A stretch of DNA of 63,970 nucleotides from a virus: the IMG/VR virus record IMGVR_UViG_3300013108_000662, positions 1 to 63,970 of that record; one strand, 5' to 3'. The notes below the pieces were generated by a model. The model made no database searches, was not told the origin of the DNA, and was given only the letters and a program-made list of their open reading frames with translations. Position numbers and translations under genes: made by a program. Every line of letters begins with the position of its first letter. Position 1 is the stretch's first letter. Shown here in pieces: positions 34,912 through 56,389 of the stretch.

Positions 34912-36021
34912 TTACTGCTTCTGAGATAAATATCTCTTTAGCTCATCGCAAACCTTTACGATTTGTTCTTGCGTAAGCTCTGCATACATCGGCAGACTCA
35001 GACAGTGGCTAGCATTATATTCGGCATTCGGAAACTGGCCGCGGGAACCATATGAGTCTGCCAACACCTCTTGCAAATGGAGGGGGGTAGGGTAATGTAG
35101 CCCTGTGGCTACTCCATTTTCTTTTAAAAATGCCTGGGCATCTTTAGGATCTGCGAGATGTACAACAAATAGGTGCCATACGGGATTCGCCCACTCTTCT
35201 ACTACGGGCAGTGTCAGTCCGGGGACATCAGAAAGATGCTCTAAGTAGGTGGCCGCATTATCGCAGCGCTGTTTGGTCCAGTCTGCGATATAATCTAGTT
35301 TAATGGCTAGTCCAGCAGCCAGGACCGATGAGAGACGCGAGTTATTGCCTAAAACATTATGTACATATTTTTCGCTAGAGCCATGGTTTCGGACTTGTTG
35401 TATAATATTAGCTAATTCTGTGCTATTTGTTGTAATGGCACCACCTTCGCCGGTTGCTCCCAAGTTCTTTCCGGGATAGAATGAGAATGCTGCAGCATCT
35501 CCCAATGATCCACAAGGAGAACCCTTATATGTTGCAAGATGAGCTTGTGCGCTATCCTCTAGTACCCAGAGGCTTCGTTCATGAGCTATTTCCTTGAGCG
35601 CGTCCATATCACACGGCTGTCCATACAAATGTACCCCGATAATACCCGCTGTACGGTCAGTGATCGCTGCGCGGACACTTTCGGGATCTATGTTCCAGGT
35701 GCCCCACTTGCAATCAACTAGCACCGGGATAGCACCCACTAACATGACCGCTTCAGCAGTGGCCACAAAAGTATTGGCAGGTAGGATTACCTCATCCCCG
35801 GGTTCCACGCCAAGTCCTCGTAGGGCAACCTCTAAGGCGTCTGTACCACTGGAGACTGCGATGCATTCTGTGGTGTTACATAGATCTGCAAACCCAGTCT
35901 CCAGGCGATCAACCCAGGGTCCTCCAACGAAGCCTGTGCAATCTATAATTTCTTCCCATGCGGTGAGCAATCTTTCTTTAATCTGCTTATGCTGGGGCTT
36001 TAAGTCTACAAATGGAATCAT
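34912..36021 (-). CDS. DegT/DnrJ/EryC1 family sugar aminotransferase (WbpE-like)
   Basis: The product is 369 residues, the full family length. Marks are IPFVDLKPQHKQIK at the start, SSGTDALEVALRGLGVEPGDEVI, VLEDSAQAH with the Asp that contacts the PLP ring, and AFSFYPGKNLGATGEGGAI with the Schiff-base Lys. It overlaps a WbpD-like acetyltransferase and follows a WbpB-like oxidoreductase. This is the order of enzymes that turn UDP-GlcNAcA into the 2,3-diacetamido uronic acid. The first enzyme of that route (a UDP-GlcNAc 6-dehydrogenase) is not in the window, so the substrate is inferred. Confidence 0.9.
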   Translation of the reverse strand: MIPFVDLKPQHKQIKERLLTAWEEIIDCTGFVGGPWVDRLETGFADLCNTTECIAVSSGTDALEVALRGLGVEPGDEVILPANTFVATAEAVMLVGAIPVLVDCKWGTWNIDPESVRAAITDRTAGIIGVHLYGQPCDMDALKEIAHERSLWVLEDSAQAHLATYKGSPCGSLGDAAAFSFYPGKNLGATGEGGAITTNSTELANIIQQVRNHGSSEKYVHNVLGNNSRLSSVLAAGLAIKLDYIADWTKQRCDNAATYLEHLSDVPGLTLPVVEEWANPVWHLFVVHLADPKDAQAFLKENGVATGLHYPTPLHLQEVLADSYGSRGQFPNAEYNASHCLSLPMYAELTQEQIVKVCDELKRYLSQKQ

Positions 36022-36500
36022 GATTCTCTCCTATGTATGATTCGAGCAGGATTGCCTACTACGGTTGTGTTGGGTGCCACATCTCTAGTGACTACAGCAC
36101 CGGCGCCAATTACAGCTCCGTCGCCGATAGTGACTCCGCACATAATTGTGGCACCTGTTCCTATACTTACTCTGGTGCCAACTGTGGTCTTCTCCAGAGT
36201 CCAATCCTCATCTGAGGCTAACTGCCCTTCTGTATTAGTGGAGGCAGGAAATCTGTCATTTATGAACATTACTCCATGTCCCACAAAACAGCCATCTCCG
36301 ATTGTGACACCCTCACAAATAAAGGTATGGCTAGATATTTTACACAGCTTTCCTATAACAGCATTTTTTTGTATTTCAACAAAAGTTCCAATTTTAGACT
36401 CATCGCCGATTGTACAACCATACAGGTTAGTGTAATGATACACCGACACACCTGCTCCTAGAGAGACAGAATCACTGACTAGAGCTGTGGGAGCTATCAT
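36018..36500 (-). CDS. Sugar N-acetyltransferase, left-handed beta-helix (WbpD/WlbB-like)
   Basis: I start at ATG 36500, giving 160 residues. This ATG forms ATGA with the stop of the oxidoreductase gene and has GGAG 8 nt before it, and the protein then begins MIAPTALVSDSVSLGAGV, the normal start of this family. An ATG at 36536 would add 12 residues without support. Hexapeptide repeats run through the protein and VFINDRFPAS is the usual loop of the WbpD/FdtC group. It should acetylate the amino group set by the downstream aminotransferase, using acetyl-CoA. Confidence 0.85.
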   Translation of the reverse strand: MIAPTALVSDSVSLGAGVSVYHYTNLYGCTIGDESKIGTFVEIQKNAVIGKLCKISSHTFICEGVTIGDGCFVGHGVMFINDRFPASTNTEGQLASDEDWTLEKTTVGTRVSIGTGATIMCGVTIGDGAVIGAGAVVTRDVAPNTTVVGNPARIIHRRES

Positions 36501-37501
36501 CTGGAAATCTCCATAGTCTCTGCTGTGTCTAGGCACTGATCTGCAAGTTCTAGAATTTGAACTATTTGAGCGGCTGTGGTGCCAGGAGCGACTGGCTCTT
36601 CTCCTGTCATAACACAGCGAGCAAAATCGTTTGCTACTTCTAGTAGCGGCTCCGTCATATCGATGGCCGGGGCGGTGGTTCCCTCATCCGTATAGATAAA
36701 TGTATCATTATCCTTTTTCATGTTCTTATGGCATATTTTAACTTTATCAGTAGGACTTAGATCATCCCAAAGAAGCATTTTTTCGGTGCCAATAATACTA
36801 AACTGCCGCGTCTTTGTTGGGGCGAGCCAACTATTATGAATAGAAATATTAATGTTATTCTCTAATTGAACATGAAGGTGGGCATCGGCAGCAAAAGGAG
36901 AATCTGGGTGTTTTGCACCCGAAGCCCTTACAGAGACGGGAACGTAGGTGTCACCTAAGACATATTCACAAATGGATAAATCATGGGGGGCGAGATCCCA
37001 CAGCACATTCACATCCTTCTGGAACAGTCCCAAATTTGTGCGTGTGGAATTAATCGCTAGAATATCCCCCAAGATGCCACTCTCCACCACCGTCCGAATG
37101 CTACGGACCGGTCCGGAGTAACAGAAAGTGTGATCGCACATAAGAGTAAGATTATTAGTGCTAGCTACTGTGACCAGCTCTGTAGCTTGCTCATAGTTTA
37201 AAGCTATCGGTTTCTCGATCAATACATGCTTCCCTTGTTCTAGAGCTGCTAGCGCCAGTTGATAATGGGTACGTACGGGGGTTGCGATTGCGACAGCGTC
37301 AATCTCGGCACTATTAAGCATAGTGTTAATATCAGAATAAATTTCTATATTCTCATAGTCTTCAATACGCGATTGAGCTAATTCAGTATTAGCATCACAA
37401 ACAGCGGTCACTTTTGTGAGTGAGCAGTTAACAAAGTTGCGAAGGAGATTCTTCCCCCAATAGCCGGTTCCGACGAGTCCTATTTTAACACGTTCATTCA
37501 T
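36497..37501 (-). CDS. Gfo/Idh/MocA-type sugar oxidoreductase (WbpB/WlbA-like)
   Basis: The product is 334 residues. KIGLVGTGYWGKNLLRNF is the NAD-binding Gly motif, AVAIATPVRTHYQLALAAL and HVLIEKPIALN are the family hallmarks (the Lys of EKP is catalytic), and WDLAPHDLSICEYVLG is the His-Asp motif of the WlbA/WbpB group. These enzymes oxidise C3 of UDP-N-acetylglucosaminuronate before transamination. It is the first gene of the three-gene module and overlaps its upstream neighbour by 4 bp. Confidence 0.88.
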   Translation of the reverse strand: MNERVKIGLVGTGYWGKNLLRNFVNCSLTKVTAVCDANTELAQSRIEDYENIEIYSDINTMLNSAEIDAVAIATPVRTHYQLALAALEQGKHVLIEKPIALNYEQATELVTVASTNNLTLMCDHTFCYSGPVRSIRTVVESGILGDILAINSTRTNLGLFQKDVNVLWDLAPHDLSICEYVLGDTYVPVSVRASGAKHPDSPFAADAHLHVQLENNINISIHNSWLAPTKTRQFSIIGTEKMLLWDDLSPTDKVKICHKNMKKDNDTFIYTDEGTTAPAIDMTEPLLEVANDFARCVMTGEEPVAPGTTAAQIVQILELADQCLDTAETMEISR

Positions 37502-38385
37502 GAGTTGGATACTTTCTCTTTATAAATTTCTAGGATTTTAGTTGCCCAAGCATCTTTTGACATACCTTGAACTTTGTGATATCCTTGTTCTCTTATTTTA
37601 TTCCTCTTTTCGGGGTTTTTTAAGTAATAAGCTATCTTTTCATTGAGATCGCGCGCGTCGGTATAAATCACCAAGTCCTCCCCATCCACAAATAACTCCT
37701 CGCGGCCTTGCCAATCTGTACTAAGAAGAAGCCCCTTAGCTCCCAATACTTTATAAACCCTGTCGGATGCACCTCCGGTCGTCGCAAGATTTAAATTTAT
37801 CTTTGACCTAGAAACAACGCGGGCATGATCGGCGGCATATGCGTTAGACACATGGGTCACAGGGTGTTCGATGGTTGCTAGCCACTTCTGTCTTTCTGAG
37901 TGGAGTGATCCTATAAAGCTGACATCTAGATCTTGCTCCAGGTCATATGGTTTATGGAACAACGGATCGTATCCTTCGAGGACATACTCTACACAAGGAT
38001 TAGCTTGTCTAAACACCTCCACCGTATTCGCGACGCCTGTACAAACATAACTACTAAATCTGGCTTTTTCGAGAATTCCGGGAGTCTGGTTTAATGTACT
38101 AAGGGGGTCCATCCACCACAAGCACGTGGTAGTCATGGCGGTACATTCCCAAAAGACGCGAGGATCTAGCTCTGCGCATTTCGAGAAAACCACCAGATCT
38201 GGCTGGCGCTGCCGGCATGTCTCTATAATGAGCTGATCCAGTGCTGTCGGACCGATATCCATGCGTTTTTGTCGAAAATTAATTCCTATAACCTCGGCGC
38301 CCGTCTTAAGGAAGCCGCGGAGTTGGGCATTATTTGTAGAGCGATTGGCGCTATCAAATACTCCAATAAATAAAATCTTAACCAT
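37498..38385 (-). CDS. Glycosyltransferase, CgeB-like GT-B
   Basis: The product is 295 residues. KILFIGVFDSANRSTNNAQL opens a first Rossmann half, VSFIGSLHSERQKWL starts the second, and SDRVYKVLGAKGLLLSTDWQGREELF is the donor-binding part of the CgeB/spore-coat glycosyltransferase family. EDLVIYTDARDLNEKIAYYL follows as in most members. It should transfer a sugar to a cell-surface glycan or protein. It starts inside the end of the methyltransferase gene. Confidence 0.8.
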   Translation of the reverse strand: MVKILFIGVFDSANRSTNNAQLRGFLKTGAEVIGINFRQKRMDIGPTALDQLIIETCRQRQPDLVVFSKCAELDPRVFWECTAMTTTCLWWMDPLSTLNQTPGILEKARFSSYVCTGVANTVEVFRQANPCVEYVLEGYDPLFHKPYDLEQDLDVSFIGSLHSERQKWLATIEHPVTHVSNAYAADHARVVSRSKINLNLATTGGASDRVYKVLGAKGLLLSTDWQGREELFVDGEDLVIYTDARDLNEKIAYYLKNPEKRNKIREQGYHKVQGMSKDAWATKILEIYKEKVSNS

Positions 38386-38989
38386 AAGGTTGTCTCTTAT
38401 CTACCACCACCATTAAACACCACTGGTTCATCTGTACATCCCGCGGTTTAGAGCGGATCTTAGTGATACTAGTAGAATAGGGCTTTGACATTGTAATAAA
38501 TTCAGCTGCGGGTGTATATCCCTCTTTGCCCGGGCGGAGGGACCAATAATTGCAGTGACCTTGTGGTGGGGGTCCGGGCATATCAAAGGATCGTTCATAT
38601 GGAACTGTAACTATTAACCTTTCTGTTGCTAAACTTAGAAGCTTTGCGTAAAAATCTTTATAGTTGGGTAGATGTTCGATAACTTCGGAACACATCACCA
38701 CTTCATAGCTATCTTCAAGCTTATCTGTTACCATGAAATCATCTTCTATAAAATTAACTCCGGCGGGGTGTGTCCAACTGGTGCGTGCTTCGATGTCTAT
38801 TGCGGTGACTGAAAGTCCCATGTTATGTAAAGTTCGAGGTACGGAGCCATGACCGCACCCAACATCTAGGATCTGGGGAGGATCCCCAAAAACCGGAAGT
38901 GCATCAATAATGCTCCTGTGTCGTATATCAAAGGGGATCTGAATGTCTCCTGCTGCGATGTGATGCAAACTATCTTTTGTATTACTCAT
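38378..38989 (-). CDS. Class I SAM-dependent methyltransferase
   Basis: The product is 203 residues. ILDVGCGHGSVPRTL is motif I for S-adenosylmethionine binding, AIDIEAR gives the acidic end of beta-2, and YEVVMCSEVIEHLPNYKDF is motif II/III of the UbiE/small-molecule type. Within this island it most likely methylates a sugar or polysaccharide end. It overlaps the downstream glycosyltransferase gene by 8 bp. Confidence 0.85.
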   Translation of the reverse strand: MSNTKDSLHHIAAGDIQIPFDIRHRSIIDALPVFGDPPQILDVGCGHGSVPRTLHNMGLSVTAIDIEARTSWTHPAGVNFIEDDFMVTDKLEDSYEVVMCSEVIEHLPNYKDFYAKLLSLATERLIVTVPYERSFDMPGPPPQGHCNYWSLRPGKEGYTPAAEFITMSKPYSTSITKIRSKPRDVQMNQWCLMVVVDKRQPYG

Positions 38990-39007
38990 TTTTTATACCT
39001 TGTGTGT

Positions 39008-39766
39008 TTATAATGAAAAGACCACATTTTCCACAACTTCATGAAGTGGTCGTACGCGATCATAGATTCCTTTTCCTCGTCCGAAATATACTAAGTCTAT
39101 CTCTTTATCCATGGCATGGCACGCGTGATAAAACACTGAGTCAGGAATACAGACCGCGGACGCGCGGCGGAGGATCTCAAATTGAACATTTATATTGTAA
39201 TCAAGGTGTCCTATCTCTTTTCCGATCTCTATCACTTTTTCTAGTCCTCGGTTCTTTTTAAGCCACTGGCGCCCATAATCTGCTGGTAAGTCTTTGGATG
39301 GTACTCCAGTTGATGTCTGCACAAAGCCGAAGGGGTCACTTCCCACCTTGTCTTCTATAATTCTTTCAGCGGTCGTAGTGTCCTCAGGCGTAGTATGCAA
39401 TTCGGTTTTAGGATCCTGGTAAGGATCGATTCCCAAATACTTAAAATTAAGAAGTATTTTGCTTATGGGGTCTGTATGCATGGGCATAACAACTCCGCGG
39501 AGACCTTTATCGCGGGCGGCCGCCTTCCAGTCGTTATAGACGGCATTAAAACCCACCTGCGAGTTGGGGTAATCTAACCAAGCATCTTTGGTATAATAGA
39601 CCTCATCGACATAGGGATTATGGTCGAAGAACTGCGCAGATCGGAATCTCTCTAGAGTCGCAACATTAAGCTTCTGTCCATGTTTATTGTAGTATTCTCT
39701 TAGCGCTGGCGTTAAGAGAACACAATCCCCAAGCCCATGAGGATAGATGACTAAGATATCTTTCAT
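39008..39766 (-). CDS. Glycosyltransferase family 9-like (heptosyltransferase-like)
   Basis: I use ATG 39766, 4 nt after the stop of the FkbM gene, giving 252 residues that begin MKDILVIYPHGLGDCVLLTPALREY. This is the acceptor-side Gly-Asp motif of GT9 enzymes. The donor part is SAVCIPDSVFYHACHAMDKEIDLVYFG near residue 215. An ATG at 39796 would add ten residues lying in the FkbM gene. An ADP-heptose donor is suggested by the rfaE/hldD genes a few kb away, but not proved. Confidence 0.75.
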   Translation of the reverse strand: MKDILVIYPHGLGDCVLLTPALREYYNKHGQKLNVATLERFRSAQFFDHNPYVDEVYYTKDAWLDYPNSQVGFNAVYNDWKAAARDKGLRGVVMPMHTDPISKILLNFKYLGIDPYQDPKTELHTTPEDTTTAERIIEDKVGSDPFGFVQTSTGVPSKDLPADYGRQWLKKNRGLEKVIEIGKEIGHLDYNINVQFEILRRASAVCIPDSVFYHACHAMDKEIDLVYFGRGKGIYDRVRPLHEVVENVVFSL

Positions 39767-39770
39767 ATTT

Positions 39771-40610
39771 TTAATCCCACCGTAATAACCAATCATTTTG
39801 CGTGTGGATTGGGGTCATAATCAGGCCGCTCGGAAGAATAGAAGTTAGCTTCTTTATTTCTTGGGGTCTCTTTTTTGCATTATTCATTTCTATCAGAAGT
39901 GCAGGCTTATAGCGTTTAATGGTCTCAAGACCTCCGGCAATAACTTCCAGATCGGCACCTTCGCAATCTATTTTAATCAGGTCGACCTTTTCTAGTTTTA
40001 ACGAATCTATAGAAATAGAGGGCACCTTATAAACTAGATCAATTAAAACTTCTTGTCCGGACAGGCTCTGGGAGCCGCGGGCTGCCTCTTCCGGTCGAAC
40101 ATATCCATACTGTCCCGTTATAAGTCCAGTTTTTATGTTATGAACCGGGAAGGATATCTTTTCCTCCGTAGTGTCGGCTAGGCACACGCGGTTGAGCACG
40201 GTGTTTGTGACGTTTTCCGGGGAATTGCTCTCTATGTTATATTTGGCGCAAACATAGTTTTGAGGTGATGCCTCCACAGAGATTATTTCCCCTCCCCCCT
40301 TCCGGGACAGATATCTTCCAAACATCATTGACATAGTTCCCATATGAGCGCCAATGTCCAATATAACCGATCCTTTTTTAATGTAAGGGAGGCTGGCTTT
40401 TATTATGTGTGAAGACAAGAGCTTTCCTTCGGCTAAATTCCCCACATCTCCGTGGATCCCCTTCAGAGATCCCCCCAGATAGTCGGGCACGTATTGTTGA
40501 GGCAACAATAGGGTGCCAAATTCATTCAAGACCTTTACGTATTCCGTAATCACGACTTCTTCGAAGCCTGTGGAGTGTCTATAAGCCATAGATTCTACTT
40601 TGGTTTTCAT
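39771..40610 (-). CDS. FkbM family methyltransferase
   Basis: The product is 279 residues from ATG 40610, which overlaps the upstream stop as ATGA; the in-frame start at 40691 would read 80 nt into the previous gene. SVILDIGAHMGTMSMMFGRYL is SAM motif I and KVDLIKIDCEGADLEVIAGG is the FkbM signature with Asp-x-Glu-Gly. FkbM enzymes O-methylate sugars and other small molecules. It is one of two methyltransferases in the island. Confidence 0.85.
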   Translation of the reverse strand: MKTKVESMAYRHSTGFEEVVITEYVKVLNEFGTLLLPQQYVPDYLGGSLKGIHGDVGNLAEGKLLSSHIIKASLPYIKKGSVILDIGAHMGTMSMMFGRYLSRKGGGEIISVEASPQNYVCAKYNIESNSPENVTNTVLNRVCLADTTEEKISFPVHNIKTGLITGQYGYVRPEEAARGSQSLSGQEVLIDLVYKVPSISIDSLKLEKVDLIKIDCEGADLEVIAGGLETIKRYKPALLIEMNNAKKRPQEIKKLTSILPSGLIMTPIHTQNDWLLRWD

Positions 40611-41422
40611 AGCTTTATTCCAAACAGGGCGTCGCCCAATTCTACAATTTCGTCGTCGACAAGGTGTCTGAACGCGGAGTGATCTTTCCATTCTTCATGC
40701 CGAGTGAGTACCTTCATCTGTTGAGCATTGCCATCGAACTTCTCACGATCGAAAGAGCTGCCGCTCCCGAAATTCATTACCTTATTCAAGCCGCGATCCG
40801 TAAATTCTAAACCAAGGCGATCGCAAATTCCTTTGCGATACTCGGCACTCACAAACCATTCATTAAAGTTTATTACTTCAATCTCTTGATGAGTCTCAGA
40901 GCCGTGTAGGGCTTGGCGGGCATGCCGTTTCCATTCTCGGAGGCGTTGGGGCAACTGAGTGCCCACATCAGTGGCCCCGGGGTCGGGAGGGTTCTTCAGC
41001 CTCTGTAAGCAAGAGGCAATAAAGTTATAAGGATCCCGAACAATTAAAATTGTTTTTCCTCCATTCTTCATTTCTGCGAAATTCCACATCTCCAAGCGAC
41101 TGTAGTCCTCCAGAGTGAGATCTTCAATGTTATAGAGATTATCTACAACTCTGGAGAAATCGGAATTATGAAATTCTTGACGGAGTTTGTTGCTGGCTGC
41201 TAGGTCTATCTTGTGATCTACAAAATAGTTCTTTACTTCGTGGCCATTGGAATTAGGAACATAATGAACCACCATATGCTCCTTCATGGGCAAGAGGCGT
41301 TTATCCGCCCAACCCTGAATGCAGTTATTATAATGTAGGACCTCGTGGCTATTCTGTTGGGCAAACCAATTGACAACGCCATGCTGTCCGCTCCTCTTCA
41401 TGCAAATAAATAAATAATTCAT
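40607..41422 (-). CDS. Sulfotransferase-like P-loop protein
   Basis: The product is 271 residues, with AGGA 7 nt before the ATG. FICMKRSGQHGVVNWF near the N-terminus has the shape of the 5'-phosphosulfate-binding loop (Lys/Arg-Ser-Gly-x-Ser/His), and KTILIVRDPYNFIASCLQRL supplies the Arg-Asp-Pro and Ser of the 3'-phosphate-binding motif of PAPS sulfotransferases. The His-Gly in place of Ser/Thr in the loop is unusual. It should transfer sulfate from PAPS to a glycan, if active. It lies 17 bp after a second sulfotransferase gene. Confidence 0.7.
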   Translation of the reverse strand: MNYLFICMKRSGQHGVVNWFAQQNSHEVLHYNNCIQGWADKRLLPMKEHMVVHYVPNSNGHEVKNYFVDHKIDLAASNKLRQEFHNSDFSRVVDNLYNIEDLTLEDYSRLEMWNFAEMKNGGKTILIVRDPYNFIASCLQRLKNPPDPGATDVGTQLPQRLREWKRHARQALHGSETHQEIEVINFNEWFVSAEYRKGICDRLGLEFTDRGLNKVMNFGSGSSFDREKFDGNAQQMKVLTRHEEWKDHSAFRHLVDDEIVELGDALFGIKL

Positions 41423-41439
41423 CTTGGTATTCCTGTGTT

Positions 41440-42162
41440 CTATTCAAAAGTGTAATTAAAGTATTTTACATCTTCGATGCACTTCTCTAGCATGATTTGC
41501 TGAGTTTGTGGGGTATAATATTCTTGATATGGTATTGACTTTGTTTTTCTAGGGACTTGTCCAAAGGGCGATGCCTTACCGCCGGCGACGTCACCGTGAT
41601 AGGTGCCAAGTTTATCGGAGTATCTTTTTAGCTTCATCTTATCAAAGATATTACCCGTATCGCGCTCTAGGTTCTCGTACCGTCCGATATAATCACTCAT
41701 TACGGTTCCGGTTTTAGGACACCTAAACCAATCCAACTGGAATCTATGGTATGAAGGATTTACTTGGCAAAATGTTGCACCATCATACATATCTACAAAT
41801 TTTTCGAACGTACTACACTGATGGCGTCCTTTTCGATTCTCGTACAGTGATACTGCTCGACACCATGGGTTTCGAACGAAACCAAACTTATACGCGGCTT
41901 GATATAATTTTTCTCCTTCGACGGCTCCTTTCAGACGATGTAACCCGCTACGATACTCATTCAAATTAAAATGTGTTCTATTACCCACCAATCTGTATCC
42001 CTTTTCTATAGGGCTTCGCACCGCTAGGCGGGAAATCGTCGTACTGGCCGTTTTGGGAACTGCAACAAAAATGAATCGATAATTAAAATATTCGCCCCAA
42101 TACCTAAGACACTTTGTCATAATGTGGCGATGTTGAGCTTCGTCATCGGTTGGAGTTTGCAC
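41440..42162 (-). CDS. Sulfotransferase family protein, GTG start
   Basis: The product is 240 residues. FIFVAVPKTASTTISRL is the PAPS 5'-phosphosulfate loop and FGFVRNPWCRAVSLYEN the 3'-phosphate motif of the carbohydrate sulfotransferase family 2. The start is GTG at 42162. AAGGAG lies 6 nt upstream of it, inside the end of the cupin gene, while the ATG 14 codons later has no such site. It probably sulfates a surface sugar. PAPS would have to come from the host, since no PAPS synthesis gene is seen here. Confidence 0.8.
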   Translation of the reverse strand: MQTPTDDEAQHRHIMTKCLRYWGEYFNYRFIFVAVPKTASTTISRLAVRSPIEKGYRLVGNRTHFNLNEYRSGLHRLKGAVEGEKLYQAAYKFGFVRNPWCRAVSLYENRKGRHQCSTFEKFVDMYDGATFCQVNPSYHRFQLDWFRCPKTGTVMSDYIGRYENLERDTGNIFDKMKLKRYSDKLGTYHGDVAGGKASPFGQVPRKTKSIPYQEYYTPQTQQIMLEKCIEDVKYFNYTFE

Positions 42163-42163
42163 T

Positions 42164-42523
42164 TTAGTCTCCTTTTACAATTCGATGACTATCCTCGTCA
42201 AAATGCTGTGTTGAGAACTCGAAAAGTTCTGTATCTTCTAGAGCAATCATCTGATGTCTCAGTCCCCGATAAACATGGAAGTTATCGCCACGTTCTAGGA
42301 TTAATTCATGGGCTGCATTGAGATCGTCACGATCAGAATATTTAACGAGCATTTTACCGGATTGAATATAAAATACTTCATCCTTCTTTACGTGATAGTG
42401 CCAGGAGCATCGCTTCCCCTTAACAAAGTACAGCAACTTCCCACAGTACTCCTCATTATTAACAATCCATTTTTCAAAGCCCCACCCCTTAGGGACGAAC
42501 GTCATTGGTAAAGAAGTCTTCAT
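42164..42523 (-). CDS. Cupin protein, mannose-6-phosphate isomerase/RmlC-type
   Basis: The product is 119 residues from ATG 42523, which has AAAGGA 7 nt upstream; ATGs at 42541 and 42505 have weaker sites. KGWGFEKWIVNNEEYCGKLL, CSWHYHVKKDEVFYIQSGKM and the late FHVYRGLRHQMIAL give both cupin motifs, with His-x-His, Glu and a final His as metal ligands. Cupins of this type isomerise or bind phosphorylated sugars. It overlaps the HAD gene by 35 bp. Confidence 0.75.
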   Translation of the reverse strand: MKTSLPMTFVPKGWGFEKWIVNNEEYCGKLLYFVKGKRCSWHYHVKKDEVFYIQSGKMLVKYSDRDDLNAAHELILERGDNFHVYRGLRHQMIALEDTELFEFSTQHFDEDSHRIVKGD

Positions 42524-42821
42524 CTTTAATTCCTTTGTCATCTATATAAATATCGCCAGCTGGCTTTCCTAAAAAGAGGGAATGAAATTTAACACCCCAC
42601 TCTGTTAGTTGGTTAAACGTGAATACATAAAACAAATCAAATGCATGTGAAGGATTGTTATGTGTTCGTCCCATTCCTCTGGCAGTTTGGAAAATGATTT
42701 TATGCCCTTCATCATAGAGGGCATTAACGCGATCTATTCGGTCCTGTAATGGCTGGGCGGTGTCATAGTCGCCGTCCGTAAGTGTACAGATGGTGCCATC
42801 AATATCAAAAACATAATTCAT
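42489..42821 (-). CDS. Small HAD-superfamily phosphatase of polysaccharide clusters
   Basis: The product is 110 residues. FDIDGTICT holds the nucleophile D6 and general acid D8, IIFQTARGMG holds the Thr of motif II, and GDIYIDDKGIKDEDFF gives the acidic motif IV. Small HADs of this kind occur in capsule and LPS operons. It sits next to the heptose genes, so it might remove a phosphate in ADP-heptose formation, but it is not of the GmhB type by length or motif and the role is open. Confidence 0.8.
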   Translation of the reverse strand: MNYVFDIDGTICTLTDGDYDTAQPLQDRIDRVNALYDEGHKIIFQTARGMGRTHNNPSHAFDLFYVFTFNQLTEWGVKFHSLFLGKPAGDIYIDDKGIKDEDFFTNDVRP

Positions 42822-42822
42822 T

Positions 42823-43593
42823 TTATATCATATCCTCGGGACGTAAGCAGTACGTCCCAAACTTTTGTACCACTATTCTAGCACAATTATTAGCGAATTT
42901 AAGCGCTGTAGGCATATCTGTTGTTCCTAGGTATTCACATACGAGGGCTGCTAAGAAAGTATCACCTGCTCCGGATACATCAAATACCTCACATTCTTCT
43001 GTGGGGTATATAGCGCCATCGTATTTCACGCCTCTGGCTCCAAGGGTTACAATAAGTTTAGCCGACGCACTTATCTGTTTCATTTCATTGCTTTCTTTTT
43101 CATTTATCTTTATGAAGCAATGCTCGTAGCATTCAAGATTTTTCTTTTTGGAATCTACAAATAATGGAATACTAGATTCATGGCACTTTCCGGAAAGATA
43201 TAGTGCTACTTCTCGACTGATAAACCCCTTGTCATAGTCTGATACTACCACCGCATCGTAGCCCGAGATATCTATCTGTTCTGGATCAATAGGTTGTACT
43301 TTATTACTCTCTCCAAAATCTGCCCTCAGAAGATGCTGTTTTGTTTTGGTATCAACGAAGCGATCTTTGTAGATCATCTCGTCATTCTTAAGAACATCCA
43401 CAGAGGCGCCCAGAGCCTCTAGGTTGGCTCCTACGTTCAGACACATGCCTAGGCGCTCTTCCGTATATAAATGCTTTAAAACGGGAACAGGAGCTTCTGG
43501 ACTAAGACGAGTAACAGAACCGTAATAATAGCGATCTGTACAGGCATCACCTATCAGTAATACTTTCAATGATTTTGGTTGTGGAGTATCCAT
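42823..43593 (-). CDS. rfaE1: PfkB-family kinase, RfaE domain I-like (heptose-7-phosphate kinase)
   Basis: The product is 256 residues, shorter than the usual 310-320 of RfaE domain I. VLLIGDACTDRYYYGSVTRLSPEAPVPV is the RfaE start, with the substrate-loop Pro-Glu-Ala-Pro, and EVFDVSGAGDTFLAALV is the PfkB GAGD anion-hole motif with the catalytic Asp. It would phosphorylate heptose-7-phosphate at C1. It overlaps the cytidylyltransferase-like gene by 47 bp. The two together equal a split HldE. The short length comes from a compact middle part, while both motifs remain intact. Confidence 0.85.
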   Translation of the reverse strand: MDTPQPKSLKVLLIGDACTDRYYYGSVTRLSPEAPVPVLKHLYTEERLGMCLNVGANLEALGASVDVLKNDEMIYKDRFVDTKTKQHLLRADFGESNKVQPIDPEQIDISGYDAVVVSDYDKGFISREVALYLSGKCHESSIPLFVDSKKKNLECYEHCFIKINEKESNEMKQISASAKLIVTLGARGVKYDGAIYPTEECEVFDVSGAGDTFLAALVCEYLGTTDMPTALKFANNCARIVVQKFGTYCLRPEDMI

Positions 43594-43945
43594 CTATTCT
43601 CTCAAAGTACTTAATCTCTTGAGCCCAGTGACCACCGACGATGGTTTTACCCTTCCAGTCAGAGCCCACTATCATTATGTCCGGTGCTGTGCTCTTTACT
43701 AGCTCCTCTAATTCCTCAGGAGTATCAAAGACCTCAACACGATCAATGTATCGTAAGGATGATAGCATAAATTTTCTATCTTCTACATTATTGATCGGGC
43801 GGTCAGGTCCCTTGGCTGCTTTAACTTTTTCATCAGAATCTATAGCGACGACCAAAGTCGTGCCTAACAGCGCCCCATATTTAAATAGTTCTAAATGACC
43901 GCGGTGCAAGATATCAAAGCACCCATTAATAAATACTGTCGTCAT
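43547..43945 (-). CDS. rfaE2: ADP-heptose synthase, RfaE domain II-like nucleotidyltransferase
   Basis: The product is 132 residues, the normal size of a stand-alone RfaE domain II. TTVFINGCFDILHRGHLELF carries the HxGH nucleotide-binding motif, AAKGPDRPINNVEDR is the RfaE-specific substrate stretch, and YSTTKIIESI ends with the ISST-like motif. It would join AMP to heptose-1-phosphate. It begins with ATGA on the hldD stop. Confidence 0.92.
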   Translation of the reverse strand: MTTVFINGCFDILHRGHLELFKYGALLGTTLVVAIDSDEKVKAAKGPDRPINNVEDRKFMLSSLRYIDRVEVFDTPEELEELVKSTAPDIMIVGSDWKGKTIVGGHWAQEIKYFERIDGYSTTKIIESITDR

Positions 43946-44799
43946 ATGAGCGGCAGCGTCTTTCTGATCCCTTCTTCTAAGCCTAGGCGTGGCATAATAT
44001 AGCCGTTTGTTGAGATCTTATAGTTGTCGCTGCAAGTGTGGGTTTGATATTTTCCTTTTAGATGCTCGGGAAAGGGAACCTCTACAATCTTAGCACCTGT
44101 CTCGGCTGCTATAATCTTGGCTACGTCGTAAAACGAACGAGCGACACCAGTTCCCACATTATAGATTCCAGAATGTTTAAAATTTGGTGCAGCGAGAGTC
44201 ATAGCTACCACATCATCAATATGAACAAAGTCACGACGATAGTTCTCGCTCCCTTCAAAAATCTTTATCTCACCAGTCTCTCGGGCTTGCATCGTAAATT
44301 TATGGACTGGGCTGGCCATATCACCTTTATGATGCTCTTCGTGCCCAAAAACGTTAAAATATCGTAACCCAAAAATACGGGCATCAGGATTTAGGTTGAT
44401 CTGCTGTGTCACGAAGAGGTCTAAAGCAGTTTTACTAATAGCATAGGAATTAATGGGGGAGGGGGCTTGAGACTCCTTTTGCGTACCTTCTGCTGGTCCA
44501 TACACGGAGGCAGATGAGGCATACACAAATGGGATGCTCTTTTCAATACAAAGCTGAAGCAGTTGCAGACTATATGTTACATTATTTTGACTTAGTAACA
44601 CAGCGTCCGTTTCTGTGGTAGAAGATATAGCACCAAGATGATAGACGCACGAAACACAATCGGTTTGCTTCAACCAAACCAAAGATTCGTCGGGCGTGAG
44701 CATTGTATCGTTTGTTGGATCACAACTAATCACTGGTCCGTCTATGTTTTCCACAAGACATCCACCAATAAACCCATTTGCTCCCGTTACCAAAATCAT
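43942..44799 (-). CDS. hldD: ADP-L-glycero-D-manno-heptose 6-epimerase
   Basis: The product is 285 residues. ILVTGANGFIGGCLVENI is the NADP-binding motif, VYHLGAISSTTETD is the HldD active-site loop, SSASVYG and INSYAISKTALDLF bring Ser and Tyr-x3-Lys, and RYFNVFGHEEHHKGDMASPV is almost diagnostic for HldD. GVARSFYDVA follows as in bacterial enzymes. It epimerises ADP-D,D-heptose to the L,D form used in inner-core LPS. Usual length is about 310, so it is slightly compact. Confidence 0.92.
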   Translation of the reverse strand: MILVTGANGFIGGCLVENIDGPVISCDPTNDTMLTPDESLVWLKQTDCVSCVYHLGAISSTTETDAVLLSQNNVTYSLQLLQLCIEKSIPFVYASSASVYGPAEGTQKESQAPSPINSYAISKTALDLFVTQQINLNPDARIFGLRYFNVFGHEEHHKGDMASPVHKFTMQARETGEIKIFEGSENYRRDFVHIDDVVAMTLAAPNFKHSGIYNVGTGVARSFYDVAKIIAAETGAKIVEVPFPEHLKGKYQTHTCSDNYKISTNGYIMPRLGLEEGIRKTLPLI

Positions 44800-45632
44800 G
44801 CTGTTATAACTCCATAAAAATATTCCAGCGCTTCCGCTACTTTCTTTTCTAATACGTCAATGAGTTCTCCCCCGGACATGTTGCCGTAAGGTTCACTTAG
44901 GAACCCAATAAGTTTGGGGTTGGTATATACCCTACAATTAAGCATTTTAGCTTCAGCTACAAGGCGACAGAACGTCTCCAGGACTTGAGGAATGAATACT
45001 AGTCCCTCGTATTCACTTAATTTTCTTAAAAACTCATATTGATCATCTGACGCTATCAAATCGAAATTGATTCCCCTGTCTGTGCAAAATTGGATTGCGG
45101 CACCGCGGCCTTTGGTGGGGTTTGAGGAATTGACGACTGCAAATTCTTTGGATTTCTCTTTTGAACAATTTCTCAAGAAGTCTAGCTTTTCTGGGGACCA
45201 GAGGCTAGTACCGATAGAATGTATAGTAGTGTTCTCTAGATTTTGTGCCATCACTCTCTTGCAGATTTCACTGAGAACTACAACCGCGGTGGCGTCCTGA
45301 TAAAAGCCTACATTTACGAGCTGATCGTGAGGAATTTTAAAACCCGCAAACCTAGAGGGATCCCGGGTCTTAACATATTTATGATCGTGTTCATAGATTA
45401 TATACTCACAATTCTTTCTCAGGTGATCTTTAATCTCGGCTGACAGGAGTACAAAATTAGCTACTATTACTTTATCGGCAGAATTCAAGACTTCTTTAGT
45501 TATATCTTTAGTATGGACTAAATTAACTACTAATCCGCGGGAGCGGAGATAGTTTATCAGGACTGCGTCGTTATTTTCACCGCCGCCATTGATCTGGTTG
45601 CTAAAGAAATCAGCCAGAAAGACGACACGCAT
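44796..45632 (-). CDS. Glycosyltransferase, GT4-like
   Basis: The product is 278 residues. VVFLADFFSNQINGGGENND is the Gly-rich acceptor loop of GT4 enzymes, VNVGFYQDATAVVVLSEICK follows as a second-domain start, and PQVLETFCRLVAEAKMLNCRVY corresponds to the donor-binding Glu-x7-Glu motif. The enzyme should add a sugar to a glycan. It overlaps hldD by 4 bp and the upstream glycosyltransferase by one base. Confidence 0.75.
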   Translation of the reverse strand: MRVVFLADFFSNQINGGGENNDAVLINYLRSRGLVVNLVHTKDITKEVLNSADKVIVANFVLLSAEIKDHLRKNCEYIIYEHDHKYVKTRDPSRFAGFKIPHDQLVNVGFYQDATAVVVLSEICKRVMAQNLENTTIHSIGTSLWSPEKLDFLRNCSKEKSKEFAVVNSSNPTKGRGAAIQFCTDRGINFDLIASDDQYEFLRKLSEYEGLVFIPQVLETFCRLVAEAKMLNCRVYTNPKLIGFLSEPYGNMSGGELIDVLEKKVAEALEYFYGVITA

Positions 45633-46885
45633 TAGAGAATCTCAATTTCTCCCAGTGCCTGCATCCACTCTAGTTCCTCTTCGGAGGGATCATAGATATG
45701 CGAAACAAAATCTTTATACAATTTTTCATCCGTAAATGTTTCGAGTATATGATTCTGGAGAGTTGTGGCTTCTTTCCTATAGTGAGTCTCTTTTTCTAGT
45801 GCGTCTAGGAGCGCTCGCTTAAAAGATGCTTCACGCGCGTAAGCCCACATAGAGTCTTTCTCGATCACCCCGGGCCAGACAGCTTGGGGTTGCACCGTCT
45901 TAACATCATAATCTACTTTGATGATGCGCGGGACTGCCTTCTTTTTCTTGTTAGGCTTAGTAATAAAATCTAACTGTCCGCTCCAAGTTACAGTAATCAA
46001 TGGCAGCCCGTTATATGCGGCCTCAAACATAGGAAGCCCGTAACCCTCTCCATGCGCAATATTAATCAATGCTTTCATGGTCGGGTGCTGATACAGCCAT
46101 GTAAGGTTTTCTGGGGTAACCTCGCCATGAATTAGATATACCTTACATTTCCGATCGGGTACTTGTTGCAATAAGGTCTCCAGCCGAGCGGAGGTGAGTT
46201 CTCTGTCGCGTACGCAGTCTGAAGCCGTATTGGTTTTAAGAATGAGTCCGGCTGTAGGGTCATCCTTGAATGCCTCGGCGAACCACTTAATCGTATTGTC
46301 TAGATTTTTTCGAGGGCCCCACTGAGAGACTGCGAGAAAATTATTCTCCGTCTCCAGATTAATGTTTAGGGGATCCGCATCATGGTGTCTTACGGGATAA
46401 TTGACACAACTAACTGGCACTGTCACGCCCCAATTAGGCACCTCATTTCCTTGTTGATCTTTTACATCATAGGTGGTTGATTCCATCACTTTTTGAGAAT
46501 GGGATGACACCGTGATAACACTGTCCATCACCGTATTAATCTTATCAATCCACTGGGGAGATATCTTAGTGGTTTCGATACCGGCAGTATATCCGATGTT
46601 CTGATCTGCTATCTTCTCAAATTCATTGGGGACCGTGATTTGTAGCGATAAATCAAATTTGCCGCCGCTTTGAATATGATGAACCGTTTGTTGAGTTTTG
46701 TTTGTAATAAAGGAGCGCTCCTCCGACTCCTCAGCTATTTGTCCGGTCTGTCCCCATCCCGTATTAACAATATATATCTCAAAGAGATCTTCTCGGCTTC
46801 GCAGGGCGCGGAGAGCGAATCTGGACTGTTCGCCATATCCAGATCTGGACAACAATGGTCCTTTTACTAAAATCTTCTTTTTCAT
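45632..46885 (-). CDS. Glycosyltransferase, GT4
   Basis: The product is 417 residues. ILVKGPLLSRSGYGEQSRFAL is a typical GT4 start, LAVSQWGPRKNLDNTIKWF begins the donor domain, and NIAHGEGYGLPMFEAAYNGLPLI is the Glu-x7-Glu motif that binds the sugar nucleotide. It lies directly after another GT4 gene (1 bp before it), so the two may add consecutive sugars. Confidence 0.85.
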   Translation of the reverse strand: MKKKILVKGPLLSRSGYGEQSRFALRALRSREDLFEIYIVNTGWGQTGQIAEESEERSFITNKTQQTVHHIQSGGKFDLSLQITVPNEFEKIADQNIGYTAGIETTKISPQWIDKINTVMDSVITVSSHSQKVMESTTYDVKDQQGNEVPNWGVTVPVSCVNYPVRHHDADPLNINLETENNFLAVSQWGPRKNLDNTIKWFAEAFKDDPTAGLILKTNTASDCVRDRELTSARLETLLQQVPDRKCKVYLIHGEVTPENLTWLYQHPTMKALINIAHGEGYGLPMFEAAYNGLPLITVTWSGQLDFITKPNKKKKAVPRIIKVDYDVKTVQPQAVWPGVIEKDSMWAYAREASFKRALLDALEKETHYRKEATTLQNHILETFTDEKLYKDFVSHIYDPSEEELEWMQALGEIEIL

Positions 46886-48136
46886 CTAAAAAGTCCTCAC
46901 TTCGTAGGGGGTATATCCGGTTCGGGTATCCCAGGAGCCAAAGTTCTCATGGATCTCAGTAAAGAGGGTGTCCCACCTTTCGACATACTGATCAAAACTA
47001 AATTGGCGCTCAGTCCATTCGCGTCCGGAGGCACCGAGATCTGCTCGTTCTTCAGGGGTCATTTCGTACATTTTTACTAATGCATTAACCACTTGCTCTT
47101 CATTGAGACGATCCTCATAAATATAGGGAACGTCTTGGGATCCAATGATAGCTCTGGATGCGGGTTCTAGTCCTATACCGTACCAGTTTTCTCCGTCTGT
47201 GAGCTGATCTTGCAGACCACCAGTCAGAGTTGCAATGATCGGAGTTCCGCATGATAGGGATTCCAATGTTGATAGTCCGAAGCCTTCGGCGTCTGCTACA
47301 TTAATAGTGACGTCGGCTATATTATACATCATGGCAAGATCTTTAGATTCCACTTTATTCTGCGAAAAAAGAACCTGTCGATCTGTGAGACCAAGTTCAT
47401 GGATAATGGCTTCTAGATCTTGTCCATGGGGGTCCTTAACGTCCGTATGCATGATGAGGGCGGCGTTCTCATGTCCCACCTTGTCCAAGAATGCCTTAAA
47501 CCAAAAGATTAAGCTTCCAGATTGCTTGCGGCGAGCGTTACGATTATTCCAAAAACAAACAAATTTCCCATCTAGCTGCTGTTCTTTTTTAACCTGTGCA
47601 ATTTGTTCGGCACTGGCAGGCTTATAAATTGTGCCATCTACAGCATGGGGAATATAAGAACTTCCCACCTCGGGGGTTACTGTCTGAACTATATCATGTG
47701 TGAGCTTGGAAATGCATGCCACATGGTCATTGGAGAGGTACCACGGTCGGTTAAAATTAGGGTAAGGATAATTATCCCAAACATGATAATATACCATGGG
47801 TACATGCGTCCGGATCTCGTTCTCAATCTGCCACAGCCACGTGTAAAAGCGTGGATCTGTCATGAACCAAAGAATATCTGGCTTTTGTTGGTGGATCATG
47901 GCGCGAACTTGTTCTGCATTACCATAGCCATCCACGGGCCAAATGATCCAATCTGTCCCCCATTCGTCGGTCTGTTGAGGCTGGTGATTGGGGTGCTTGA
48001 TGGCGCCGCCAAAAGAAACAAACTGGTACTTGCCAGTTTTAAGCATTCCTTCAATGATGTATTTGGTTTGTGTTCCCACCCCAGAAGGAGATAATGGATG
48101 GTCACTGATCGTAAAGATCTTAATCTTATCTGACAT
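46886..48136 (-). CDS. Glycosyltransferase, GT4
   Basis: The product is 416 residues. IFTISDHPLSPSGVGTQTKY is the N-terminal acceptor loop, DGKFVCFWNNRNARRKQSG starts the donor domain with the basic phosphate-binding residues, and VADAEGFGLSTLESLSCGTPII is the GT4 donor motif. It is the first gene of the sugar island in the direction of transcription and lies 8 bp after the Cas4-like nuclease gene. Confidence 0.88.
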   Translation of the reverse strand: MSDKIKIFTISDHPLSPSGVGTQTKYIIEGMLKTGKYQFVSFGGAIKHPNHQPQQTDEWGTDWIIWPVDGYGNAEQVRAMIHQQKPDILWFMTDPRFYTWLWQIENEIRTHVPMVYYHVWDNYPYPNFNRPWYLSNDHVACISKLTHDIVQTVTPEVGSSYIPHAVDGTIYKPASAEQIAQVKKEQQLDGKFVCFWNNRNARRKQSGSLIFWFKAFLDKVGHENAALIMHTDVKDPHGQDLEAIIHELGLTDRQVLFSQNKVESKDLAMMYNIADVTINVADAEGFGLSTLESLSCGTPIIATLTGGLQDQLTDGENWYGIGLEPASRAIIGSQDVPYIYEDRLNEEQVVNALVKMYEMTPEERADLGASGREWTERQFSFDQYVERWDTLFTEIHENFGSWDTRTGYTPYEVRTF

Positions 48137-51703: not shown

Positions 51704-51780
51704 TGGCTGCGGCGGTTGGATTCGAACCAACGACCCTCCGATTAACAGTCGGACGCATCTACCAGCTGAGCTACGCCGCA
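51704..51780 (-). tRNA. tRNA-Asn (anticodon GTT)
   Basis: A full cloverleaf can be drawn: acceptor UGCGGCG paired with CGCCGCA, D-arm GCUC-AGCUGGUAGA, anticodon loop CUGUUAA, T-loop UUCGAAU. Discriminator G and the 3' CCA are encoded. Confidence 0.95.
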
Positions 51781-51789
51781 CCATTACTA

Positions 51790-51795
51790 ATTATA
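51790..51795 (-). promoter_or_regulatory. Possible -10 element before tRNA-Asn
   Basis: TATAAT on the minus strand ends 10 nt before the 5' end of the tRNA, a natural spacing for a tRNA promoter. The best -35 (TTGATG) is 20 nt away, so this is weak. Confidence 0.25.
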
Positions 51796-51824
51796 CAGCA
51801 TTCTTCTTATTTTTACATCAAATA

Positions 51825-51913
51825 TGGCAGAGGGAGCGGGATTTGAACCCGCGGTGGCTACAAACCACACAGCCTTTCCAAGACTGCACCATAAACCGCT
51901 CGGACATCCCTCT
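51825..51913 (-). tRNA. tRNA-Ser (anticodon GGA)
   Basis: This is a class II tRNA with a long variable arm. Acceptor AGAGGGA pairs with UCCCUCU, the anticodon loop is UUGGAAA, and the T-loop is UUCAAAU. Discriminator G and encoded CCA are present. Confidence 0.93.
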
Positions 51914-51920
51914 TGATTGT

Positions 51921-51995
51921 TGGAGCGGGTGATCAGATTCGAACTGACGACATTCGCGTTGGCAACGCGATGCTCTACCACTGAGCTACACCCGC
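51921..51995 (-). tRNA. tRNA-Gly (anticodon GCC)
   Basis: Acceptor GCGGGUG, anticodon loop UUGCCAA and T-loop UUCGAAU form a normal cloverleaf with encoded CCA. The first base of the tRNA touches the last base of the thermonuclease gene at 51995. Confidence 0.94.
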
Positions 51996-53134: not shown

Positions 53135-53211
53135 TGGTCGGAGTGGTAGGATTCGAACCTACGACTTTCGCGTCCCAAACGCGACGGACTGCCAGACTGT
53201 CCTACACTCCG
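53135..53211 (-). tRNA. tRNA-Pro (anticodon TGG)
   Basis: Acceptor CGGAGUG paired with CACUCCG, anticodon loop UUUGGGA and T-loop UUCGAAU form a full cloverleaf. Discriminator A and CCA are encoded. First member of a four-tRNA cluster at its left end. Confidence 0.94.
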
Positions 53212-53214
53212 ATA

Positions 53215-53292
53215 TGGTGGGCAATGAGGGACTCGAACCCCCGACTTCCTCCGTGTAAAGGAGGCACTCTAAACCAACTGAGTTAATTGCCC
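53215..53292 (-). tRNA. tRNA-Val (anticodon TAC)
   Basis: Acceptor GGGCAAU paired with AUUGCCC, anticodon loop UUUACAC and T-loop UUCGAGU. Encoded CCA. Only 3 nt separate it from tRNA-Pro. Confidence 0.93.
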
Positions 53293-53297
53293 GAAAA

Positions 53298-53373
53298 TGG
53301 TGGAGGTGATAGGGATCGAACCTACGACATCCAGCTTGCAAAGCTAGCGCTCTCCCAACTGAGCTACACCCCC
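53298..53373 (-). tRNA. tRNA-Ala (anticodon TGC)
   Basis: Acceptor GGGGGUG paired with CACCUCC includes the G3-U70 wobble that marks alanine tRNAs. The anticodon loop is UUUGCAA and CCA is encoded. Confidence 0.95.
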
Positions 53374-53380
53374 ATTATTT

Positions 53381-54057
<677 letters not shown>

Positions 54058-55987: not shown

Positions 55988-56299
55988 TTATTCACAACAG
56001 TCGTGTTTATCTTGATTATCTTCCCTATTGGATAGTTTAACCCACAGACCCCAGAGGATCGGAATTGCTAACCAATGAAAACACAAGATAAGAGATGCGG
56101 GGATTCCAGCATAGAAAGCTGGATGTACATAGTTCCCCAAGGCGCCAAAGATAATCGGAAATACAACGTCCTCGACAATCTCCCACCCAACAAATATGAT
56201 AACAAAAGCTAATCCATTTTTCCTCAGGAAGGCTCTTAACCTCTCTTTGGAGAAGTTGGCCAACTTGTGAGAGATTCTAGATTTTAACCATGTAATCAT
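55988..56299 (-). CDS. Small membrane protein, two predicted helices
   Basis: The product is 103 residues. A basic N-terminus is followed by two hydrophobic segments (about residues 29-53 and 60-86) and a charged tail ending in Cys-Cys-Glu. Size and shape would fit a holin, but nothing in the sequence proves it. The start codon is only 8 nt after the 3' end of the tmRNA-like RNA, with no clear ribosome site between. Confidence 0.6.
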   Translation of the reverse strand: MITWLKSRISHKLANFSKERLRAFLRKNGLAFVIIFVGWEIVEDVVFPIIFGALGNYVHPAFYAGIPASLILCFHWLAIPILWGLWVKLSNREDNQDKHDCCE

Positions 56300-56307
56300 A
56301 AGTTTTT

Positions 56308-56389
56308 TGGTGGAGGTGCACGGAGTCGAACCGTGGTCCTGAGAATACCCTTGCAGGTCTTAATCCCAGTCGAAACCCAAACCACCCCC
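56308..56389 (-). ncRNA. tmRNA-like RNA consisting only of the tRNA-like domain
   Basis: The 82-nt RNA starts GGGGGUG and ends CACCUCC-ACCA, a 7-bp acceptor with the G3-U70 pair of alanine RNAs. The 5' segment UUUGGGUUUCGACUGGG is the stemless D-loop signature of tmRNA, and the 3' segment GGACCACGGUUCGACUCCG is the tmRNA T-arm end. The anticodon arm is replaced by a long irregular helix: CUGGGA pairs with UCUCAG (one G-U pair), the helix continues past one U-U mismatch to UA/UA pairs and an AGA bulge, and ends CCU/GGG closed by a GCAA tetraloop. No tag reading frame or pseudoknots are present. No anticodon loop with U33 can be drawn, so it is not an ordinary tRNA. Confidence 0.75.

What the first reader, a model, noticed from the sequence alone, without database searches (positions are those of the whole stretch)
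56308..56389. tmRNA reduced to its tRNA-like domain in a phage genome
An 82-nt minus-strand RNA has the tmRNA 5' hallmark (GGGGGUG, then UUUCGAC in a stemless D-loop), the tmRNA T-arm and CCA end, and the alanine G3-U70 pair. Where the mRNA-like domain should leave the molecule, it has a P2-like helix capped by a GCAA tetraloop, with no tag frame or pseudoknots. Complete tmRNAs are about 350 nt, and I recall domain-free tmRNAs only from some mitochondria. It could be charged with alanine and enter stalled ribosomes with SmpB without tagging, or act as a decoy that blocks host trans-translation. No smpB gene is seen here.
Basis: partly seen in the sequence, partly recalled or inferred. Interest (0 to 1): 0.92.

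Follow-up and report, generated by a model that had tools for sequence, protein, structure and literature searches.

The report
Phage tmRNA without its messenger part
A phage gene makes a miniature version of the bacterial ribosome-rescue RNA that keeps the part charged with alanine and held by its partner protein but lacks the message; one such phage RNA was already known, and this work finds the same design in dozens of unrelated phages, where it probably interferes with the host's ribosome-rescue system.

Summary
Window 56308-56389(-) is an 82-nt tmRNA tRNA-like domain (TLD): Rfam RF00023, 67.2 bits, E 5e-24, aligned end to end with the 302-position mRNA-like part skipped. It is not unique. 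Pattern scans found the same design in over 100 IMG/VR contigs (69 distinct phage or MAG sequences; 46 groups by shared proteins), and BLAST found it in cultured Streptomyces and Stenotrophomonas phages, where it is not annotated. The helix replacing the mRNA-like domain covaries: 91% standard pairs against 43% when partners are swapped between sequences. The alanine determinant G3:U70 was never replaced: a scan for any other base at position 70 found nothing in 2.9 million contigs. The A that packs SmpB Trp122 (A334 in E. coli) is kept in 99 of 99. None of 51 phage records searched holds smpB, nor a full-length tmRNA. The kind is not new: mycobacteriophage DS6A carries a TLD-only tmRNA, and a similar RNA inhibits tmRNA in E. 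coli (Mao 2009, cited in PMC4131195 and PMC11915505). Most likely it is a host-charged, SmpB-binding competitor that blunts trans-translation; that function is inferred. Its breadth, covariation, strict alanine identity and a chromosomal counterpart in Poribacteria appear unreported.

The parts
56308..56389 (-). TLD-only tmRNA, 82 nt including encoded CCA
   Evidence: RF00023 67.2 bits, E=5.4e-24, full-length alignment with 302-position skip
56383..56389 (-). acceptor stem 5' strand GGGGGUG; G3 at 56387
   Evidence: sequence; pair 3 is G:U in 69/69 distinct relatives
56370..56382 (-). stemless D-region GUUUGGGUUUCGA with the UUCGAC tmRNA signature (U17, C18, G19 in E. coli numbering)
   Evidence: SmpB contacts of U17 and G19 from PMC8363625
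56339..56369 (-). P2-like capped arm: CUGGGA/UCUCAG helix, internal loop UUAAG/AU, ACCU-GCAA-GGGU hairpin, in place of the mRNA-like domain
   Evidence: fold of arm; covariation in relatives
56336..56339 (-). GGAC linker; its A (56337) is equivalent to E. coli A334 in the SmpB Trp122 pocket
   Evidence: A in 99/99 distinct sequences although not required by the search patterns; role from PMC8363625
56319..56335 (-). T-arm CACGG-UUCGACU-CCGUG
   Evidence: T-stem pairs 1-3 all standard in 69/69 with four pair types
56312..56318 (-). acceptor stem 3' strand CACCUCC; U70 equivalent at 56314
   Evidence: U70 in 99/99 with the position left open; no hit with A, C or G there
56308..56311 (-). discriminator A and encoded CCA
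53135..53456 (-). tRNA cluster Pro(tgg), Val(tac), Ala(tgc), Thr(tgt), same strand, about 3 kb away
   Evidence: ARAGORN and Rfam
51704..51995 (-). tRNA cluster Asn(gtt), Ser(gga), Gly(gcc), same strand
55988..56299 (-). downstream ORF, 103 aa, hydrophobic, no family; present at the same place in L029, L035, L047 but replaced by dnaK in L041

Best explanation
The gene encodes a tmRNA consisting only of the tRNA-like domain, its P2 helix closed by a hairpin. After RNase P trimming, host AlaRS charges it (G3:U70, A73), host SmpB binds its elbow (U17, G19, A334 equivalents), and EF-Tu carries the complex into ribosomes whose mRNA channel is empty. There it occupies SmpB and the A site and takes the nascent chain onto a single alanine, but offers no resume codon or tag. 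It therefore competes with host tmRNA, so proteins on broken mRNAs made during infection are not tagged for proteolysis. Shown here: identity, conserved structure, conserved charging and SmpB determinants, absence of smpB and of full-length tmRNA in the phage records. Inferred: expression, charging, binding, competition, and the benefit to the phage.
For: tmRNA identity. Over 100 viral contigs with the same design. P2 arm pairs 2-7: 91.1% standard against 42.8% (sd 2.4, maximum 51% of 2000) with partners swapped and 36-42% with partners slid; 89.1% against 43.5% with one sequence for each of 46 protein-sharing groups. U70 in 99/99 with the position left open and no A/C/G70 in the whole collection. 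A334 equivalent in 99/99, not imposed by the patterns. 0 of 50 other phage records hold SmpB and each has exactly one tmRNA match, the short one, including 193.8-kb, 162-kb and 141.7-kb contigs; none in the window record. Cultured-phage copies found by BLAST without the pattern keep G3:U70 even where pair 4 changed from G:C to U:A (LuckySocke, BRock). Literature: DS6A is TLD only, and a similar molecule, chargeable or not, strongly inhibits tmRNA, perhaps by titrating SmpB (PMC4131195; PMC11915505). In the ribosome H2 points out between the subunits and a tmRNA fragment with SmpB and EF-Tu binds (PMC8363625), so a capped arm should fit.
Against: No expression, charging or binding data. Pure SmpB titration would not need charging, since uncharged RNA also inhibits (PMC4131195), so invariant G3:U70 argues that charging matters and that simple titration is not the whole story. 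Single-sequence folding energy is not unusual. The TTCGAC and acceptor positions were imposed by the search patterns and are not independent evidence.
Confidence: 0.5

Rival explanations
1. A working minimal rescue factor: alanine-charged TLD with host SmpB accepts the stalled chain and lets it be released by another factor (ArfA/RF2, ArfB, or drop-off), clearing ribosomes without tagging, as supposed for MLD-less mitochondrial tmRNA. The phage gains ribosomes and keeps its truncated proteins.
For: Strict G3:U70 and A334 equivalents mean charging and SmpB binding both stay under selection. MLD-less tmRNAs persist in mitochondria that have SmpB (PMC11915505). Poribacteria keep one next to a full tmRNA in the same genome.
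Against: A similar RNA inhibited rather than helped in E. coli (PMC4131195). No release step is known for peptidyl-TLD without a tag stop codon.
Confidence: 0.25
2. An alanine-carrying RNA with a non-rescue role, for example a decoy for host nucleases or modification enzymes that attack tRNA elbows during phage defence, or an alanine donor to another enzyme.
For: Often sits in phage tRNA arrays (19 of 133 loci have a tRNA within 500 nt; the Streptomyces phages), where tRNAs that replace host tRNAs cut by defence nucleases are also found (own knowledge).
Against: The SmpB-pocket A is invariant and the tmRNA D-loop is kept, which such a role would not need. It has no anticodon loop for anticodon nucleases.
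Confidence: 0.12
3. A non-functional remnant, such as a prophage attachment-site copy of host ssrA or a decaying full-length tmRNA.
For: Many viral contigs do carry only the tmRNA 3' end (38 of 119 matches), as expected for att sites; Alone3 looks decayed.
Against: Both ends are present and paired, P2 covaries with all pair types, and the gene sits in tailed-phage genomes next to capsid, portal, helicase or tRNA genes.
Confidence: 0.03
4. One half of a two-piece tmRNA, with the mRNA-like piece encoded elsewhere in the phage.
For: Two-piece tmRNAs occur in marine phages (PMC9004378).
Against: P2 is closed on itself, leaving no strand to pair with a second piece; no other RF00023 or permuted-tmRNA match at gathering score in the window, and no second RF00023 match in a 193.8-kb relative.
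Confidence: 0.02

Closest known systems
TLD-only tmRNA of mycobacteriophage DS6A (Mao et al. 2009; tmID 11587)
   Same: [quoted passage not shown] no tag frame (PMC4131195, PMC11915505).
   Different: DS6A was not held in the collections under the accessions tried, so no direct sequence comparison was possible. The window copy lies in a myovirus-like genome and belongs to a broad covarying family.
Standard bacterial tmRNA (ssrA, RF00023)
   Same: Acceptor with G3:U70, UUCGAC D-loop, GGAC, T-arm, CCA, P2 start.
   Different: No mRNA-like domain, tag frame, H5 or pseudoknots; 82 nt instead of about 350.
MLD-less organellar tmRNAs (mitochondrial, RF02544; Mallomonadaceae plastids, about 65 bp)
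   Same: TLD retained without a coding part (PMC11915505).
   Different: Organellar, and the mitochondrial genes are usually permuted; these are phage genes that act in bacteria, which normally have a full tmRNA of their own.
Two-piece tmRNA of phage Melnitz (PMC9004378)
   Same: Phage-encoded tmRNA in an aquatic phage.
   Different: Melnitz keeps an mRNA-like piece and is permuted; here there is none.

Membership tests
tmRNA (RF00023) | TLD acceptor/T-arm/D-loop core scoring above the gathering threshold | tested here: met
   67.2 bits against 47
tmRNA (RF00023) | G3:U70 alanine determinant | tested here: met
   present; 99/99 with position 70 open, 0 exceptions in IMG/VR
tmRNA (RF00023) | nucleotides contacting SmpB (U17, G19, A334) | tested here: met
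   present; A334 equivalent 99/99; contacts from PMC8363625
tmRNA (RF00023) | mRNA-like domain with tag reading frame | tested here: not met
   302 model positions skipped, arm of 31 nt
tmRNA (RF00023) | pseudoknots and H5 | tested here: not met
   no sequence for them
tmRNA (RF00023) | charged with alanine, binds SmpB, rescues ribosomes | not testable with these tools
   needs experiment
TLD-only phage tmRNA (DS6A type) | phage gene with little more than the TLD | tested here: met
TLD-only phage tmRNA (DS6A type) | inhibits host tmRNA | not testable with these tools
   reported for a similar molecule (PMC4131195)
Two-piece (permuted) tmRNA | 5' end downstream of 3' end, separate coding piece | tested here: not met
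   standard order; no permuted-model match above gathering
tRNA-Ala | anticodon arm with 7-nt loop and D-stem | tested here: not met
   no D-stem or anticodon loop; not called by ARAGORN
Prophage ssrA attachment remnant | only the 3' end of tmRNA, as left by integration into host ssrA | tested here: not met
   complete 5' and 3' ends that pair with each other

The most novel reading that the evidence does not exclude
A widespread phage RNA family, found in many tailed-phage lineages, that uses the host's own AlaRS, EF-Tu and SmpB to seize stalled ribosomes and add one alanine without a tag: an RNA-based anti-trans-translation (or tag-free rescue) device in which charging is essential and not mere SmpB titration, with a chromosomal counterpart in Poribacteria.
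Probability: 0.4. Interest if true: 0.82.

Novelty: new member of a known kind. Interest (0 to 1): 0.6.

Why it matters
One phage case (DS6A) was on record as an oddity. Finding the same RNA in dozens of phage groups, with covarying structure and an alanine determinant that is never lost, indicates that many phages profit from an MLD-less tmRNA. That makes the question of how and why phages interfere with ribosome rescue testable in cultured systems such as Streptomyces phage LuckySocke on S. lividans. A charged TLD that stops after one alanine would also be a natural tool for dissecting trans-translation.

Tried and rejected
Two-piece tmRNA: rejected (self-closed P2, no second piece). Prophage att remnant: rejected (both ends kept, covariation). 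Degenerate tRNA-Ala: rejected (tmRNA D-loop, no anticodon arm). Cis-regulation of the downstream 103-aa gene: unlikely, since neighbours differ among close relatives (dnaK in L041) and across lineages. Folding energy as evidence: uninformative. BLAST of the window RNA against cultured phages: no real relative, only short matches to tRNAs and unrelated sequence. Promoter scan: sites near the gene on the minus strand are consensus matches only; the single terminator-like hit overlaps the RNA itself and is taken as a pattern artefact. DS6A under NC_023744 and JN698994 (accessions from memory) was not held, and Mao et al. 2009 is not in the library, so the inhibition result is cited second-hand. 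MAFFT alignment A1 misplaces the 5' acceptor strand because D-loop length varies; pair counts were therefore made by fixed registers in a script.

Full report
What is there. The minus strand of 56308-56389 reads GGGGGUG-GUUUGGGUUUCGA-CUGGGA-UUAAG-ACCU-GCAA-GGGU-AU-UCUCAG-GAC-CACGG-UUCGACU-CCGUG-CACCUCC-A-CCA. The Rfam tmRNA model aligns over its whole length with the mRNA-like part skipped: 67.2 bits, gathering score 47, E=5.4e-24 in the window search and 1.8e-25 in the local search. ARAGORN does not report it. The record is a 63,970-base viral contig with a baseplate-wedge homologue, a PhoH-like protein and seven tRNAs on the same strand, which suggests part of a larger myovirus-like genome; its relative L035 comes from a 193.8-kb contig.

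It is not chance and not unique. Together with 3 MAG loci, these make 69 distinct sequences (more than 6 edits apart) after setting Poribacteria aside, in 46 groups when loci are joined by two or more shared proteins. Group counts are rough because many contigs are short. Among matches to a tmRNA 3' end in viral contigs, about 3% were TLD-only, against 33 full-length and 35 permuted of 119, so the form is a minority one.

The structure is under selection. In fixed, ungapped registers the P2 arm pairs 2-7 are standard in 91.1% of cells against 42.8% (sd 2.4, maximum 51% in 2000 trials) when 3' strands are swapped between sequences, and 36-42% when slid. With one sequence per group the figures are 89.1% and 43.5%. 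All four Watson-Crick pairs and G:U occur at the inner positions. T-stem pairs 1-3 and acceptor pair 5 are standard in 69 of 69 while changing type. Most arms carry a second short hairpin; where it reads CCN-loop-NGG, the third pair is standard in 35 of 42. Nine arms are short simple hairpins.

Functional determinants kept. The first scan required U70, so I left that position open: 99 of 99 distinct sequences have U. A scan for A, C or G at that position found nothing in the collection. G3 itself was required by these patterns, but the Streptomyces and Stenotrophomonas copies were found by BLAST, and they keep G3:U70 although pair 4 is U:A in LuckySocke, GiJojo and BRock and other acceptor pairs differ in Shaeky and Jojan60. 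The linker A equivalent to E. coli A334, part of the pocket for SmpB Trp122 (PMC8363625), is A in 99 of 99 without being required, while its neighbours vary. U17, C18 and G19 were required by the pattern and so do not count as independent evidence, though all intact cultured-phage copies keep G19.

Genome context. None of 50 relatives' records holds SmpB (Pfam PF01668; the control search rang in all ten bacterial controls) and each holds exactly one tmRNA match, the short one; the window record has no SmpB. Many records are fragments, so absence is strong only for the large ones. Neighbours differ between lineages: between head maturation protease and major capsid protein (L003 group), next to DnaB-like helicase (L015, L051, L131), exonuclease (L056), portal (L100), or inside tRNA arrays. 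In the window's own group the following gene is a 103-aa hydrophobic protein in some and dnaK in L041. This speaks against a cis-role tied to one gene.

Cultured phages. Streptomyces phages LuckySocke, GiJojo, BRock, pSt2308 and Shaeky and Stenotrophomonas virus Jojan60 carry RF00023 matches of 57-65 bits and 81-83 nt, none annotated as tmRNA. Alone3 holds a decayed copy with T-stem mismatches and a changed D-loop, below the gathering score.

How it probably works. AlaRS recognises G3:U70; SmpB binds the TLD elbow; [quoted passage not shown] and a tmRNA fragment with SmpB and EF-Tu has been seen on the ribosome (PMC8363625). A capped TLD should therefore be charged, bind SmpB and enter stalled ribosomes. 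With no resume codon it should compete with host tmRNA. Published work agrees: DS6A has little more than a TLD, and a similar molecule, chargeable or not, strongly inhibits tmRNA, perhaps by titrating SmpB (PMC4131195; PMC11915505). The invariant G3:U70 adds something: if titration were all, charging would not need to be kept. I therefore favour a charged competitor (0.5) over a tag-free rescue factor (0.25). Steps from charging onward are inference.

Membership and novelty. It should work like a tmRNA up to ribosome entry but fails two defining features of full tmRNA (mRNA-like domain, pseudoknots). It meets the sequence description of the DS6A-type TLD-only phage tmRNA, so it is a new member of a known kind. 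What I did not find in the literature I could search is the breadth of the family, its covariation, the strict alanine identity and the Poribacteria case. The tmRNA database of 2025 lists only 9 standard-form sequences without a coding part (PMC11915505).

Noticed in passing
L112-L115, L117, L118, L121, L122 (Candidatus Poribacteria MAGs): An 83-86 nt TLD-only tmRNA gene in bacterial MAGs, beside a gene for a PLP-dependent decarboxylase (checked in L113). About 10 of 59 sampled genomes of the phylum have one, and most of these also have a full-length tmRNA with smpB next to it. A cellular second tmRNA without a message; I know of no report.
   Followed up: partly
L156 (OR725497 17977-18057), L157, L159, L160, L161, L163: Unannotated TLD-only tmRNAs in cultured Streptomyces phages and Stenotrophomonas virus Jojan60; in GiJojo a hypothetical protein is annotated over it.
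   Followed up: yes
L158 (OR725492 around 18169-18231): Streptomyces phage Alone3 has a decayed copy (T-stem mismatches, altered D-loop) of the RNA that is intact in its close relative LuckySocke: a natural loss.
   Followed up: partly
L041:10183-12009(-): A complete DnaK/Hsp70 gene (Pfam HSP70 E 3e-240) directly downstream of the TLD RNA in a relative of the window phage.
   Followed up: no
L116 (Sinomicrobium MAG) and L120 (Mycobacterium MAG): TLD-only tmRNAs in bacterial genomes that also have a full tmRNA; L116 lies by a terminase gene, so probably a prophage or phage contig.
   Followed up: partly
L034:9494-9696(-): Rfam match to RAGATH-24 (54 bits) about 1 kb from a TLD-only tmRNA in a phage contig.
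   Followed up: no
window 34912-48136: A long run of sugar and surface genes: glycosyltransferases, aminotransferase, sulfotransferase-like, methyltransferases.
   Followed up: no
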